Below, one piece after another: positions 58,466 through 64,000 of a stretch of DNA of 64,000 nt. Made by a program: the position numbers and the translations under genes. The notes below the pieces were generated by a model. It was not told the DNA's origin and searched no databases. It saw nothing but the letters and a program-made list of their open reading frames with translations. Positions within the stretch are counted from its first letter, which is position 1. Every line of letters begins with the position of its first letter. The stretch is from Chryseobacterium sp. POL2 (lineage in GTDB: Bacteria; Bacteroidota; Bacteroidia; Flavobacteriales; Weeksellaceae): assembly GCF_011058315.1 (NCBI RefSeq), contig NZ_CP049298.1:62001-126000 (forward strand). Direction: 5' to 3'.

Positions 58466-58552
58466 AGAGAGGTGTCCGAGTGGTTGAAGGAGCTAGCCTG
58501 GAAAGTTAGTATAGGGGTAACTCTATCGAGGGTTCGAATCCCTTCCTCTCTG
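58466..58552 (+). tRNA. tRNA-Ser (anticodon GGA)
   Basis: An 87-base cloverleaf with a long variable arm. Acceptor AGAGAGG pairs with CCTCTCT (discriminator G); anticodon arm CTAGC-CTGGAAA-GTTAG gives GGA; variable arm with TATAGGGGTAACTCTATC; T arm GAGGG-TTCGAAT-CCCTT with one G-U and one weak pair. CCA is not encoded. Foreign-looking genes begin downstream of its 3' end. Confidence 0.95.
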
Positions 58553-58601
58553 CAATATCGACTGATTATCAATGGTTTATGATAATTACAGCCAAAAATA
58601 C

Positions 58602-58699: not shown

Positions 58700-59899
58700 C
58701 TACTTTAATACAACCTGCATTTTACCAATATCATATTTATAATTCACGATATTACCATTCATAAACAAATCGATTACTGTATTTATTTCCTCTAAAGGAA
58801 CAGAAAACCATTCTCTGGGAATGTATCGATTGTCTTGTTTATCATACAAATCAATATTCAAACAAGCTTCAGCAAAGAAACGATGAATTAGATTTTCAAA
58901 TTGATGAATATTGAGATTGTAACAAGCAAAAGAATCTACAATTTCTACATCAGCAAAAAGATAAGTAGCTTCTTTCTTCGCATTCTTTATTCTTTCTTTC
59001 ACTGGTAATTTAGAAAATCCAATTTTATAAAGATTGCGAATGTTTTGGATTTCTTTATTTTCTGATTTCGATTTTAAAATATAAATCCAACCACTTTCAA
59101 CATCTTCTTCTTTTACAATTCCAGCATTTTCAAATAATTGCTTTTCGATATTCTCATCAGGATTGGTAATCAGCTTACCATTCTTTTGAATAGCTTTACC
59201 CAAGGAACGAAACAGCATATTGGAAATGGTTGCATTCTCAAATATCGTTACAGTACGACCTTCCAATCTCATTCTGTCACCTGATTTATTTTCTCGAAGT
59301 ACCTTTTCTGCTTTGGAAACTTTCAAATAACAAAGTAAACCATCTACTAAATAGAAATTGCCTTCCATCAAATTATCTTCAGCATTTTTAAATTCTAAAA
59401 ATTTACGCTTGCCTTCTTTTAATTCACGATGGACTTGCCTGAACATCAGATCATATCTAGCGAATTCCGCTTCCGACATCGATTGCCTTTGTGCAACATA
59501 ATCTGCTTTATCACGACTTCCGCTTTTGGGCGTATGTTTAAATTCAAAAATAGATGTATCTCCGCCGTTATCTAACAATCCTAAATCATCATCATTTAAG
59601 ATATCGTCCAAACTTTCTATTTTCGTTTCAATTTTGCCAAGCAGGTTATGGCGGTCGAAAGTTTTCAAAAACGCTTTTCTATTTTCATTGGCTTTAAATT
59701 CCTTCAAGCGTGAAAACAGTGCATATTCTGACATGGACGCTTGCTTTGGTTCGCGTTTGTTTTTCTCAAAAAAATCGTTTATTTCTTCAAAAGATTCAAT
59801 AAGACGATCTTCATCTGTTTTGATTTCAGATTTTTGAATTTTAGCATCTAAAAGTCCAAATTCATCATCATTTAAAATATCATCTAGACTCTTAGCCAT
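58700..59899 (-). CDS. GIY-YIG (T5orf172-type) nuclease with repeated acidic motif
   Basis: 399 residues. A catalytic GIY-YIG domain near the C-terminus (about 268-385): WIYILKS, YKIGFS, an Arg at about 303, Glu335 in HQFENLIHRFF and the closing REWFSVP. This matches the T5orf172/Mug113 type, which cuts DNA. The N-terminal half is unusual: SLDDILNDDEFGLLD (residues 4-18) is repeated as SLDDILNDDDLGLLD (96-110). The two acidic copies frame a basic helical part. The gene overlaps the end of the helicase gene by 8 bases, so the two proteins are coupled in translation. Role inferred: nuclease partner of the helicase. Confidence 0.82.
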   Translation of the reverse strand: MAKSLDDILNDDEFGLLDAKIQKSEIKTDEDRLIESFEEINDFFEKNKREPKQASMSEYALFSRLKEFKANENRKAFLKTFDRHNLLGKIETKIESLDDILNDDDLGLLDNGGDTSIFEFKHTPKSGSRDKADYVAQRQSMSEAEFARYDLMFRQVHRELKEGKRKFLEFKNAEDNLMEGNFYLVDGLLCYLKVSKAEKVLRENKSGDRMRLEGRTVTIFENATISNMLFRSLGKAIQKNGKLITNPDENIEKQLFENAGIVKEEDVESGWIYILKSKSENKEIQNIRNLYKIGFSKLPVKERIKNAKKEATYLFADVEIVDSFACYNLNIHQFENLIHRFFAEACLNIDLYDKQDNRYIPREWFSVPLEEINTVIDLFMNGNIVNYKYDIGKMQVVLK

Positions 59900-62324
59900 T
59901 TTGCGCTTTTCTACGTTTTAAATCTTGAATAAATAATAATGCTTGAGCTAATCTTTGTTCTCTTGGATCATAAGAATTAATATCGGGAGGATTTCCGGTC
60001 TGTTGTTTCCAGCGTTTAATGCCTTCCCAAGATGCAAAAGCTTCTTCCTCAGTCATTTCAATACGGGTAATATTAATACTGTCTTGAATGGATCTCAAAA
60101 CAGAAGTGGTTACGCTTTTAGAAAGGATTTCAAATGCTTTTTGGAAAGGGTTAACGGTATCAATTAAATCAATATTAACATCATCAATATTCACAAAACT
60201 TCCCGCCATACGAATGAATTTTTTAGAACCATGATCTTCGACAGTTCCGTTTTTTATAACTGAATCTACTACGACATGTTGACGAATAGCTTCAATATCT
60301 TCTTCGTTTAAATCAGGATATTTCTCTCGAATTATTTTTGGAATTAAAACCGTATTGATGACTTCGGGTTCAAGATTTCCAGGCATAGCTTTTAGCATGG
60401 TGTCATCTTGCAGAATGGTAGCTTTAAGATCATTCAAATCAGATTCGATAATGTCTTTGGCTCTTTGAGAAGTCGGTTTTTTGAATCCACGGATTTTAAT
60501 AGTGTTTTCATCATCACCTTCATCATCAGGATCATCCATTGGTTTGAATTTGAAATTGGGAGCCAAAACTTGCTCCATCAATAACGAAGCTGTAATTGCT
60601 TTTAGCATGTTATTCACTGCTAATTTCACATCATCATCTACAGCATCGGGTTGTGCAATAAGATTGGTAAACTGTGCATGATTTTTATTGTTGCTGTCTC
60701 TGGTTGCTCGACCAATAATCTGAATTATTTCTGTTAAAGAACCTCGATAACCAATTGTTAAAGCATGTTGGCAAAAAGGCCAGTCAAAACCTTCTTTTGC
60801 CATTCCGAGGGCTATAATAATATCGATATCTTCCTCCGACTTTACCCCTCGTAAATAGGCTACAATTTTATCCCGCTCTTTCTGATTATCATTTACCAAA
60901 TCCGCAACTTTTAAAATGCGTCCTGAACGTTTACTTTTGACATACAAAACGCCTGTTTCGGTATCTTGATATTCTAAAACTCCAAGGCAATCTATAATAT
61001 GATCTACTTCTTGCGTTTTTTCTTTGGAAGATTCGGCTGAATTTACGCTTGGAATGTGAATAATGGTTTTAAGGTTTTCATCTAAAATTTCTTCCAATGC
61101 GGACATGCCTTTTTCATCATCGTGTTTGTAATATCTTCCACGATAAAAATGATAACCTATTCCTAGAGATCTCAAAAATTCATAGCCATTCAACTGATCG
61201 TAATAGTTATAGGTAACATTCGTAAATTTAGCCTCATCCTCTGGAGTTAAAACTGGAACACTATCTCCACGGAAATAAGATCCTGTCATTGCAATAATAT
61301 GCGCATTGGATTTGGACATCATATTTCGCAGCACATTTCCTAAAATATTATCGCCATCAGCAGAAACATGATGAAATTCGTCAATCGCAATCAAACAATT
61401 ATTAAAATCCTCTTCTTTCAATCCTTCAAAAGCAAAACGCAAAGTAGCATGTGTACAAATCAAAATCCTTTCTTCTGATTCTAAAAAATCGTAAAATGCT
61501 TTCACTTTCGATTTATCACTTCCTGCGGTACAAAGGTTATAACGTTGGTTATATTCCCAATTGGTAAAAAACCCATATTTGGATAATTCTGTAGGCGCAA
61601 AAGAATTTCCTATGGAACGTTCAGGAACTGCAACGATGGCTTTTTTAATGCCTTGATTTTGCAATTTATCTAACGCCAAAAACATTAACGCTCTCGATTT
61701 TCCCGATGCAGGTGGTGCTTTTATTAAAAGGTATTGAGCGGTTCGTGCTTCGTAAGCTTTGGCTTGCATTTCACGCATTCCCATTTCATTGGTAGATTTA
61801 CTTTTACCTGTTTGGTCGTAAGTAACATTTACCAAATTGATGGGTTTTATATATTCTGGATGTTTGATTTCCATTGTTGATTTTTCTTTTTTTACTTGCT
61901 CTTTGGATTGTTGAGCTGTGGCATTATGATATTCTTTATCTGATTTTGAATCATATACAATTGATCCTAAAAGCAAATTGATGGTATCAGAAAACAATTC
62001 ATGACCTTTTGGGTCTAATCCATTTGGATAGCCTGATTTATTGATTACCCAACCTTTTAATGTTATCAAAATACGTGGACTATCAGGATTGTACCCTCCT
62101 TGCAACAAAAGATGGGTAATGGGTTTTGGTTCAGCATACTTTCCTCCTTTATCTTTTTTATACAATTTATTCAGATAAAAATCGGTCAAATCTCTGTATT
62201 CTACATTTTTAACACCATTGCGCATTTCATCTATATACACATTTTTAATCGTCATGTATAGTATGTTTTCTTTGCGTAGATTTAGTTCATCTATTGTTTC
62301 TTGCAATTCGGTTGAATATCCCAC
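59892..62324 (-). CDS. ASCH-domain plus DEAD/DEAH SF2 helicase fusion
   Basis: 810 residues from a GTG start. Residues 20-110 look like an ASCH domain (YMTIKNVYIDEMRNG, VEYRDLTDFYLNKL, THLLLQGGYNPDSPRI, LKGWVI), a PUA-like fold that binds RNA or modified bases. A linker and a full SF2 helicase core follow: motif I APPASGKS (203-210), motif II DEFHH (315-319), motif III TGSYFRGD (347-354), motif V near AMAKEGFDW (508-516) and motif VI QIIGRATRD (535-543). The C-terminal part (600-810) has an acidic linker and helical repeats ending in basic KRRK. It resembles the R subunits of restriction systems but has no nuclease domain; the nuclease is the next gene. Confidence 0.82.
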   Translation of the reverse strand: MGYSTELQETIDELNLRKENILYMTIKNVYIDEMRNGVKNVEYRDLTDFYLNKLYKKDKGGKYAEPKPITHLLLQGGYNPDSPRILITLKGWVINKSGYPNGLDPKGHELFSDTINLLLGSIVYDSKSDKEYHNATAQQSKEQVKKEKSTMEIKHPEYIKPINLVNVTYDQTGKSKSTNEMGMREMQAKAYEARTAQYLLIKAPPASGKSRALMFLALDKLQNQGIKKAIVAVPERSIGNSFAPTELSKYGFFTNWEYNQRYNLCTAGSDKSKVKAFYDFLESEERILICTHATLRFAFEGLKEEDFNNCLIAIDEFHHVSADGDNILGNVLRNMMSKSNAHIIAMTGSYFRGDSVPVLTPEDEAKFTNVTYNYYDQLNGYEFLRSLGIGYHFYRGRYYKHDDEKGMSALEEILDENLKTIIHIPSVNSAESSKEKTQEVDHIIDCLGVLEYQDTETGVLYVKSKRSGRILKVADLVNDNQKERDKIVAYLRGVKSEEDIDIIIALGMAKEGFDWPFCQHALTIGYRGSLTEIIQIIGRATRDSNNKNHAQFTNLIAQPDAVDDDVKLAVNNMLKAITASLLMEQVLAPNFKFKPMDDPDDEGDDENTIKIRGFKKPTSQRAKDIIESDLNDLKATILQDDTMLKAMPGNLEPEVINTVLIPKIIREKYPDLNEEDIEAIRQHVVVDSVIKNGTVEDHGSKKFIRMAGSFVNIDDVNIDLIDTVNPFQKAFEILSKSVTTSVLRSIQDSINITRIEMTEEEAFASWEGIKRWKQQTGNPPDINSYDPREQRLAQALLFIQDLKRRKAQNG

Positions 62325-62555: not shown

Positions 62556-63671
62556 TTACACCCTCACTAATCGCATCAATGGTTCAAAAGAATACAATGC
62601 AGCTCTTCGCCCTGACGCTTCTTCTTTTACAACCAAATAATCATTTTCCACAAGTTTTTTGATAATTAAAACAGCTGTTGCGTTTGGTATTTTTGTATTA
62701 CTTACAAACTTATTATTTCTAAATACAGGATTGGTAAATATATAATCTACAATTTCCATATTCCATTTAGAAGAAAGCAAATCAGAAAATTCCATTTTCG
62801 TTTGTTCATACAAATTTTTGATATTTTCTGCAATTTGTAAATTTTTGACTGCTTGGCTTTCTACTGCTTTTAGAAAAAACTTAATCCAATCATCCCAATT
62901 ATTTTTATTAGAAACTTCCCGCATTTGTTCAATGTATTCATCTTTGTTTTCTTCAAAATAACCACTGATGTAAAAGTGAGGTTGAGACAATATTTTTTCT
63001 CGCCATAAATTAAGTGTAATAAGCATTCTTCCTATTCTACCATTACCATCTTGAAATGGGTGAAGTGCCTCAAACTCGAGATGCATTAAAGCAGTCTTAA
63101 TAAGTGGCGGAATATCTGAATTTTGTAAAAAAGAAAATAAATTATCCAAACCTTCTTCTAATTTTTCTGGATTAATGGGGACAAATTGGATTTCTTTTTT
63201 GCGCTTATCTGCTAAATAATTCTGCTCTTTTTTGAATTCGCCTGGTGATTTACTTGCTCCCCTTCCAAGATACAACAATTGCTGATGCATTTGTTTGATA
63301 AAATTGATAGAAAAAGGATAGCCACTCTCTAAAGCTTCCTGCGCATTCTTTAATGCTCTTTGATACAAAATAGTCTCAATAACATCAGATTTCACAGTAG
63401 TATTTTCAGTACCTTCATGATCTGCTTCATATTGCAAGATTTCATCCATAGTACTAATGGTTCCTTCTATACGAGAAGATATTACCGCTTCTTGATTACG
63501 TAAAGGTGCTAATAAGATTTCGGTATTGTGTAGGTTTTTCAACATTTGGTCAAACCTTGCCAAAGCATCGGTAGCACTCACCAGTTCTTGGATAAAGTGT
63601 ATATAATCCACCTTTTCTGGAGGAAATTTTCCATAGTGATAGCGTACCGCATTGCTCAAATTATACTCCAT
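62556..63671 (-). CDS. Fic family protein (class II, N-terminal inhibitory motif)
   Basis: 371 residues. The active loop HPFQDGNGRIGR (204-215) is complete, so it should transfer AMP from ATP to Ser, Thr or Tyr of a target protein. An inhibitory motif S65-S-R-I-E69-G70 lies in the N-terminal part, matching class II Fic proteins that are kept off until released. A Fic/DOC N-terminal domain (about 15-110) precedes the core, and a winged helix (about 315-360) follows it. Target unknown. Chromosomal Fic proteins of this type are common in Bacteroidota; a place in the island suggests defence or regulation. TATTTTTG box at 63701-63694. Confidence 0.9.
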   Translation of the reverse strand: MEYNLSNAVRYHYGKFPPEKVDYIHFIQELVSATDALARFDQMLKNLHNTEILLAPLRNQEAVISSRIEGTISTMDEILQYEADHEGTENTTVKSDVIETILYQRALKNAQEALESGYPFSINFIKQMHQQLLYLGRGASKSPGEFKKEQNYLADKRKKEIQFVPINPEKLEEGLDNLFSFLQNSDIPPLIKTALMHLEFEALHPFQDGNGRIGRMLITLNLWREKILSQPHFYISGYFEENKDEYIEQMREVSNKNNWDDWIKFFLKAVESQAVKNLQIAENIKNLYEQTKMEFSDLLSSKWNMEIVDYIFTNPVFRNNKFVSNTKIPNATAVLIIKKLVENDYLVVKEEASGRRAALYSFEPLMRLVRV

Positions 63672-63701: not shown

Positions 63702-63726
63702 ATAAAAAATCATCATCCAAATACAT

Positions 63727-63898
63727 TTGCTTACAAAATATATTGTTTTTTTGTAAGCAAATATATTTGATGTCAGAAATTGTAAGCAAGCTTTTTTGTT
63801 TACAAAATATTACTTAAAATTGTAAACAAACTTTTTTGTTATCAAGAATTGTAAACAAAAACACTTGCTTCCAAAAATAATGCGTTTATTGTAAGCAA
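63727..63898. repeat. Array of nine TTGTAARCAA 10-mers in both orientations upstream of fic
   Basis: Forward copies start at 63751, 63780, 63820, 63849 and 63889 (spacing 29, 40, 29, 40). Reverse copies start at 63727, 63796, 63836 (one mismatch) and 63865 (one mismatch). Three units have the form forward copy, 6 bases, reverse copy: 63780-63805, 63820-63845 and 63849-63874. It lies between the fic promoter and the stop of the next minus-strand ORF. It could be a multi-site operator or an iteron-type origin. Confidence 0.8.
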
Positions 63899-63903
63899 AT
63901 ATT

Positions 63904-64000
63904 TTATCCTGAAAAATAATTCGCTGAAATATTATTCTCAGACAACCATTCTGAAAGCACATCAAAACAATCTGCTCTGTCTTTCAGCATACTTACTAAG
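63904..64000 (-). CDS. Partial ORF at the right window edge (C-terminus only)
   Basis: The minus strand is open from the window edge to a TAA at 63904-63906: 31 codons ending in DVLSEWLSENNISANYFSG. Codon use looks natural and the stop sits just next to the repeat array. I do not recognise the protein. It may be the gene upstream of fic in the island. Confidence 0.45.
   Translation of the reverse strand, partial: LVSMLKDRADCFDVLSEWLSENNISANYFSG

What the first reader, a model, noticed from the sequence alone, without database searches (positions are those of the whole stretch)
58700..62324. ASCH-helicase and GIY-YIG nuclease operon: candidate modification-dependent defence system
Seen: an SF2 helicase with an N-terminal ASCH-like domain overlaps by 8 bases a GIY-YIG nuclease, in an island beside tRNA-Ser. 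Known: ASCH/EVE PUA-like domains can read modified bases, and modification-dependent restriction couples such readers to NTP-driven motors and nucleases. Inference: the ASCH part finds modified phage DNA or RNA, the helicase translocates and the GIY-YIG protein cuts. I do not recognise this pairing as a named system.
Basis: partly seen in the sequence, partly recalled or inferred. Interest (0 to 1): 0.78.

Follow-up and report, generated by a model that had tools for sequence, protein, structure and literature searches.

The report
DnmA-YeeB-YeeC restriction system with ASCH add-on
The two genes are the motor and cutter of a widespread but little-studied three-gene DNA restriction system whose DNA-marking enzyme lies just beyond the window, and this copy carries an uncommon extra domain, possibly a reader of modified bases, that has been added to such restriction machines more than once.

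Summary
In detail: an SF2 helicase with an N-terminal ASCH-type domain overlaps a GIY-YIG (T5orf172) gene by 8 bp beside tRNA-Ser. The interpretation misses the main component. An MmeI-family DNA N6-adenine methyltransferase starts about 190 bp beyond the window end, with a Fic gene nested between it and the helicase. All 80 species-level helicase relatives retrieved are followed by the GIY-YIG gene, and all 72 with enough upstream sequence have the methyltransferase. This is the DnmA-YeeB-YeeC cluster noted in Bacillus subtilis, best read as a type I-like restriction-modification system. In every helicase-linked methyltransferase examined the fused MmeI nuclease motif is lost; in an independent sample, all 35 MmeI proteins with an intact motif lack helicase and GIY-YIG neighbours. 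The ASCH domain is an uncommon accessory, absent from most relatives. The same subfamily is fused to YeeB in seven systems seen here, fused to YeeC's C-terminus in one, and encoded beside HsdR in two genomes. That suggests a second, modification-reading input on ATP-driven restriction machines; its ligand is unknown. Verdict: new variant of a known kind.

The parts
58700..59899 (-). YeeC-like protein, 399 aa: N-terminal half with two copies of an acidic SLDDILNDDxxGLLD motif, C-terminal T5orf172/GIY-YIG nuclease domain (about 266-380)
   Evidence: Pfam T5orf172 E 8e-13, MUG113 E 1e-13. GIY-YIG residues G270, Y273, K292, G294, R303, E335 and H339 are 100% conserved in 112 aligned sequences.
59892..61844 (-). 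YeeB-like SF2 helicase core (residues about 161-810)
   Evidence: Pfam DEAD, ResIII, Helicase_C. Walker A APPASGKS at 203, IDEFHH at 314, motif VI QIIGRATR at 535; motifs kept in 123-124 of 126 relatives.
61915..62324 (-). ASCH/PUA-like N-terminal domain of the helicase (residues about 1-130), GxKxxExR motif at 37-44; a linker (about 131-160) follows
   Evidence: Model pLDDT 84, best Foldseek hits ASCH structures. Motif and relatives. Present in 6 of 296 same-family genomes as a YeeB fusion.
62556..63671 (-). SoFic-type Fic AMP-transferase gene, nested between methyltransferase and helicase; optional cargo
   Evidence: PADLOC SoFic E 1e-112; Pfam Fic and Fic_N; active-site HPFQDGNGRIGR and inhibitory SSRIEG motifs intact.
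63718..63905 (.). Three tandem palindromic repeats (69-bp spacing, TTTGCTTACAAA..TTTGTAAGCAAA type) directly upstream of the Fic gene; possible operator
   Evidence: the repeat finder family D1, L082:6719-6906, sequence.
58466..58553 (+). tRNA-Ser(gga) flanking the insert; conserved synteny with relatives ends at its 3' end
   Evidence: ARAGORN; homology in 39 of 40 genomes searched and break point.

Best explanation
This is a three-protein, type I-like restriction-modification system derived from an MmeI-family (type IIL) enzyme. The methyltransferase (DnmA-like, about window coordinates 64193-66886, outside the window) recognises a short asymmetric site and methylates one adenine to mark self DNA. 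Its own fused PD-(D/E)xK nuclease has been lost. When it meets unmethylated sites on incoming DNA it recruits or licenses the YeeB helicase, which translocates on DNA with ATP, and the GIY-YIG protein YeeC makes the break. The nested Fic gene is optional cargo, as RhuM, AlbA_2/Schlafen-like and HigBA genes are in relatives; a back-up or abortive role is a guess. The ASCH domain on this YeeB is a recruited accessory, most likely a reader giving the motor a second input, for example modified bases that would hide phage DNA from the methyltransferase. Shown here: gene content, co-occurrence, motif loss and motif retention, nuclease exclusivity, ASCH fold and its repeated recruitment. Inferred: restriction activity, order of events, ASCH ligand, Fic role.
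For: GIY-YIG partner directly downstream in all 80 relatives from many phyla plus this locus. Methyltransferase upstream in all 72 relatives with room; the 8 without it are cut by the contig end. The methyltransferase has all five MmeI Pfam domains and aligns to MmeI 5hr4 over its whole length, E 2e-186. MmeI nuclease residues D70/E80/K82 are replaced in every alignable relative, none intact. In an independent sample of the phylum, 35 MmeI proteins with intact D-x9-E-x-K have no helicase or GIY-YIG neighbour, while the 4 with both neighbours all lack it (by hand, Fisher p about 1e-5, ignoring relatedness). GIY-YIG catalytic residues invariant, helicase motifs kept, NPPY kept in 87 of 100 methyltransferases with mostly NPPF otherwise. 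A 7.7-kb Pediococcus plasmid has only these three annotated genes. MmeI specificity positions 806/808 alternate among KD, ER and RD, as expected of a restriction system changing targets. Literature: Type I-like RM suggested for this cluster (PMC7261158, citing Morgan 2009); dnmA and yeeB deletions in Vibrio crassostreae raise sensitivity to some phages (reported in PMC9973331, citing Piel).
Against: In B. subtilis, deleting yeeB or yeeC did not change susceptibility to three phages, and deleting dnmA did not change transformation; the authors call it a non-functional relic (PMC9973331, PMC7261158). No restriction activity has been shown biochemically for the triad as far as I found. The window gene is not itself tested.
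Confidence: 0.72

Rival explanations
1. Modification-dependent (type IV-like) system: ASCH recognises modified phage nucleic acid, the helicase translocates, GIY-YIG cuts, and the methyltransferase is incidental.
For: ASCH-type domain is real. PUA-like relatives (EVE, YTH) bind modified bases, and EVE-GIY-YIG fusions are predicted type IV enzymes (PMC7641849).
Against: The methyltransferase is present whenever the contig allows it. ASCH is missing in nearly all relatives, so it cannot be the general targeting part.
Confidence: 0.08
2. Hybrid: methylation-guided restriction plus a modification-dependent mode added by ASCH, so that both unmethylated and hypermodified DNA are attacked by one motor and nuclease.
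For: The same ASCH subfamily sits on YeeB's N-terminus in seven systems seen here, on YeeC's C-terminus, and beside HsdR. A dual model of this kind was proposed for type I systems with EVE proteins, and ASCH is fused to HsdS in Methanohalophilus (PMC7641849).
Against: No ligand known; association only. ASCH relatives also include enzymes (YqfB) and DNA or RNA binders without base-modification specificity.
Confidence: 0.3
3. Relic: only the methyltransferase still acts, as an orphan regulator of gene expression, as concluded for B. subtilis.
For: B. subtilis data (PMC9973331, PMC7261158).
Against: Here all three genes are intact with catalytic residues kept; the trio is conserved across phyla and on plasmids; the V. 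crassostreae phenotype cited in PMC9973331.
Confidence: 0.12
4. BREX/DISARM-like: methylation marks self, and the motor blocks foreign DNA replication without cutting; YeeC is a scaffold or processing factor.
For: Methyltransferase plus SF2 motor is the common plan; weak PbeA and DrmMI profile similarity.
Against: GIY-YIG catalytic residues are invariant, and loss of the fused nuclease coincides with gain of YeeC.
Confidence: 0.08
5. ASCH as integrated decoy or anti-inhibitor: phage-encoded ASCH proteins of the same subfamily act on restriction motors, and the fused host copy protects against or senses them.
For: Same-subfamily ASCH genes lie next to NinG in Riemerella phages and a prophage-like locus.
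Against: No functional data on the phage proteins; the free phage proteins are also distant (about 26-29% identity).
Confidence: 0.07

Closest known systems
DnmA (YeeA)-YeeB-YeeC cluster of Bacillus subtilis (PMC7261158, PMC9973331)
   Same: Order methyltransferase, SF2 helicase, T5orf172/GIY-YIG; methyltransferase homologous to MmeI but without its endonuclease motif; found in defence-rich regions.
   Different: Here YeeB carries an N-terminal ASCH domain and a Fic gene is nested between the first two genes. YeeB and YeeC core catalytic motifs are intact, whereas the B. subtilis copies were reported to lack stretches of their C-terminal domains.
Type IIL/IIG MmeI family
   Same: All five MmeI domains, NPPY catalytic motif, same specificity-residue code at 806/808.
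   Different: The fused PD-(D/E)xK nuclease motif is lost; cutting is assigned to a separate GIY-YIG protein together with a helicase.
Type I restriction-modification (HsdRMS)
   Same: Methyltransferase that doubles as target finder plus ATP-driven SF2 motor; an ASCH gene of the same subfamily beside HsdR in two genomes.
   Different: Single-chain methyltransferase with its own TRD instead of HsdM plus HsdS; nuclease is a separate GIY-YIG protein, not fused to the motor.
EVE/ASCH-linked restriction systems predicted by Bell et al. 2020 (PMC7641849)
   Same: PUA-like domain attached to restriction machinery, including ASCH on HsdS and standalone EVE/ASCH with type I operons.
   Different: I found no report there of ASCH on the YeeB helicase or YeeC nuclease (searched passages only).

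Membership tests
DnmA-YeeB-YeeC cluster | MmeI-homologous methyltransferase lacking the PD-(D/E)xK motif | tested here: met
   MmeI domains, 5hr4 alignment, D70/E80/K82 replaced.
DnmA-YeeB-YeeC cluster | SF2 helicase and T5orf172/GIY-YIG protein downstream in this order and orientation | tested here: met
   a Fic gene is inserted before the helicase.
DnmA-YeeB-YeeC cluster | Direct sequence similarity to the B. subtilis YeeB and YeeC proteins | not tested
   B. subtilis protein records were not at hand; only the MmeI_TRD family was seen to match in the B. subtilis control genome.
DnmA-YeeB-YeeC cluster | Single-strand m6A at an asymmetric site | not testable with these tools
   Needs SMRT or nanopore data. 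E/R at positions equivalent to MmeI 806/808 predicts C as last base (rule from PMC4081073).
Type IIL MmeI restriction enzyme | Active PD-(D/E)xK nuclease in the same polypeptide | tested here: not met
   All three catalytic residues are replaced in the MmeI alignment; none of the alignable relatives is intact.
Type I RM | Separate HsdS subunit and nuclease fused to the HsdR motor | tested here: not met
   TRD lies inside the methyltransferase; no nuclease domain found in the helicase; GIY-YIG is a separate gene.
Type IV modification-dependent restriction | No partner methyltransferase | tested here: not met
   Methyltransferase always present where the contig allows it to be seen.
Type IV modification-dependent restriction | Cuts only modified DNA | not testable with these tools
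   Needs a cutting or phage assay.
ASCH superfamily (N-terminal domain) | GxKxxExR motif | tested here: met
   GVKNVEYR; K39, E42 and R44 invariant in nine aligned sequences.
ASCH superfamily (N-terminal domain) | PUA-like beta-barrel fold | tested here: met
   Model pLDDT 84, pTM 0.78; top Foldseek hits are ASCH structures at probability 0.98-1.00; VIA Z up to 6.9, all modest.
ASCH superfamily (N-terminal domain) | Reaches the Pfam ASCH cut-off | tested here: inconclusive
   Window protein no hit; five free-standing relatives have ASCH as best hit at 15.8-20.0 bits against a cut-off of 21.2.
Named PADLOC defence system | Helicase and GIY-YIG match models of one system | tested here: not met
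   Only weak cross-hits (PbeA, Cas3, PDC-S57); methyltransferase scores as REase_MTase_IIG.

The most novel reading that the evidence does not exclude
A PUA-like ASCH reader has been recruited repeatedly to ATP-driven restriction machines (YeeB N-terminus, YeeC C-terminus, gene next to HsdR), creating dual-specificity systems that attack both unmethylated DNA (through the methyltransferase) and hypermodified phage DNA (through ASCH) with one motor and nuclease.
Probability: 0.28. Interest if true: 0.75.

Novelty: new variant of a known kind. Interest (0 to 1): 0.5.

Why it matters
The strict either/or between a fused PD-(D/E)xK nuclease and a YeeB-YeeC pair supports a nuclease-swap origin and predicts ATP-dependent restriction. 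The ASCH-bearing copies give a direct test of whether a PUA-like reader can extend a restriction-modification machine to modified phage DNA, which would join type I-like and type IV logic in one complex.

Tried and rejected
(1) Stand-alone two-gene system: rejected after extending beyond the window and surveying relatives. (2) Match to a named PADLOC system: weak cross-hits only. (3) Literature search for a modern name of the triad: only DnmA-YeeB-YeeC papers found. Morgan 2009, Makarova 2011 and Piel 2022 are not in the library and are quoted second-hand. (4) Clean empty site: a same-genus genome lacks the 8.7 kb, but the two flanks lie about 70 kb apart there, and no exact repeat of 15-40 bases of the tRNA 3' end was found in the window or the flanking locus, so an att site was not identified. 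(5) Scans of viral contigs with the ASCH domain itself or a close free-standing relative gave nothing; the phage ASCH query gave 10 loci. (6) A profile search of PDB sequences with the ASCH alignment gave no significant match. (7) A Porphyromonas ASCH query against a phylum sample found only the window's genome, so wider counts rest. (8) YqfB-type amidohydrolase activity: considered; from my own knowledge its catalytic Thr is replaced by Glu42 here, so thought unlikely, not tested.
Full report
Observation. Pfam confirms DEAD, ResIII and Helicase_C in the first and T5orf172/MUG113 in the second. The N-terminal part of the helicase has no Pfam hit. It matches phrog_625 and small phage proteins, and free-standing relatives hit Pfam ASCH as best family just below the cut-off. 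It carries the ASCH motif GxKxxExR as GVKNVEYR. A model (pLDDT 84) has ASCH structures as its best Foldseek matches; VIA Z-scores are modest and mix ASCH, YTH and other PUA-like folds. The ASCH call is therefore supported.

The missing part. It has the N, helicase-spacer, methyltransferase, TRD and C-terminal domains of MmeI and aligns to MmeI 5hr4 over its whole length.

Survey. In all 80 genome loci the GIY-YIG partner follows directly, split into two ORFs in a few. The methyltransferase is upstream in all 72 loci with room; the other 8 are cut by the contig end. In 35 of the 72 it is directly adjacent; in 37 there is an insert, most often RhuM (13 proteins), HATPase_c_4/AlbA_2 (10 and 9) or Fic (5) among 69 nested proteins scanned. 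A 7.7-kb Pediococcus plasmid carries only the three genes as annotated features, and an E. coli plasmid shows the same trio.

Known name. This gene trio is the dnmA-yeeB-yeeC cluster. Nye et al. (PMC7261158) showed that DnmA makes m6A at GACGAG in B. subtilis, noted its 38% identity to MmeI and, citing Morgan 2009, that it belongs to MmeI homologues lacking the endonuclease motif and flanked by yeeB- and yeeC-like genes, for which a Type I-like system was suggested. The 2023 mBio paper (PMC9973331) found the cluster conserved and linked to defence genes, found no effect of yeeB or yeeC deletion on three phages in B. subtilis, and reported that dnmA and yeeB deletions in Vibrio crassostreae increase sensitivity to some phages. 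I did not have the B. subtilis proteins for a direct comparison; the B. subtilis control genome matches the MmeI_TRD family.

Nuclease swap. MmeI's catalytic residues D70, E80 and K82 are replaced in every alignable methyltransferase of helicase-anchored loci. As an independent test I took 40 regions with MmeI_TRD from a phylum-wide sample not chosen by helicase. Among proteins with a readable N-terminus, 35 have an intact D-x9-E-x-K and none of these has a helicase or GIY-YIG neighbour; 4 have helicase and GIY-YIG downstream and none of these has the motif. Two N-terminally incomplete proteins were set aside. Fisher's exact value worked out by hand is 1/82251, about 1e-5, without correction for relatedness. 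GIY-YIG catalytic residues are invariant in 112 aligned YeeC sequences and helicase motifs are kept. Residues equivalent to MmeI 806/808, which set the last base of the target (rule in PMC4081073), alternate KD 49, ER 32, RD 16 of 100; the window's enzyme has E/R, predicting C.

ASCH as accessory. In the loci brought in by the helicase core only this system, G035 and Porphyromonas somerae carry ASCH on YeeB; on a core tree they sit in one small clade with three ASCH-less members. In 296 same-family genomes the fusion occurs in six; the four new ones are complete methyltransferase, cargo, ASCH-helicase, GIY-YIG systems. In genome G225 an ASCH domain is instead fused to the C-terminus of YeeC (blastp E 5e-5 to the window domain, motif GEKKIEYR). 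Free-standing proteins of the same subfamily (44-50% identity) lie directly after HsdR in two genomes, and others lie beside NinG in phages or prophage-like DNA. Repeated attachment to restriction motors and nucleases suggests a shared function. Bell et al. 2020 (PMC7641849) proposed that EVE domains let type I systems restrict modified as well as unmodified DNA and noted ASCH on HsdS. That is the model I favour for the domain, at about 0.3, since no ligand is known.

Island. Synteny with relatives runs through the asparaginase-like gene and tRNA-Ser and stops at the tRNA 3' end. In the same-genus genome G001 homology resumes at the far side of the methyltransferase, so the 8.7 kb is absent there. 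The flanks are far apart in G001, so this is a gain next to a tRNA but not a clean empty site.

Verdict. What is new, as far as the searched literature shows, is the quantified nuclease exclusivity and the recurrent ASCH recruitment.

Noticed in passing
window 63718-63905 (L082:6719-6906): Three tandem 69-bp-spaced palindromic repeats directly upstream of the Fic gene, possibly operators for its C-terminal winged-helix-like domain.
   Followed up: partly
L082:6905-7144 (about window 63904-64143): A 79-aa ORF between methyltransferase and Fic; a second overlapping frame upstream suggests it could be a frameshifted small gene.
   Followed up: no
window 58700-59899, residues 4-18 and 95-110: YeeC begins with an acidic SLDDILNDDxxGLLD motif that recurs near residue 96; in L059, L062, L080 and L182 the protein is split into two ORFs near that point, suggesting two modules or docking motifs.
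   Followed up: partly
L182:1286-2509 (-): ASCH domain fused to the C-terminus of the GIY-YIG protein in genome G225.
   Followed up: yes
L246:7154-7762, L247:8525-9052: Free-standing ASCH genes of the same subfamily directly downstream of type I HsdR genes.
   Followed up: partly
L097:4004-4333, L231:957-1367: Small ASCH genes next to NinG in Riemerella phages and in a prophage-like locus; function unknown.
   Followed up: partly
L002-L081, between methyltransferase and helicase: About half of the systems hold nested cargo at this one position (RhuM, AlbA_2/HATPase_c_4, Fic, Bro-N, AAA ATPases, nucleases), resembling cargo in type I operons.
   Followed up: partly
L084, L089, L091 (genome G012): Remnant pieces of the helicase (87-90% identical to the window's) and a separate free-standing ASCH gene in one related genome.
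   Followed up: no
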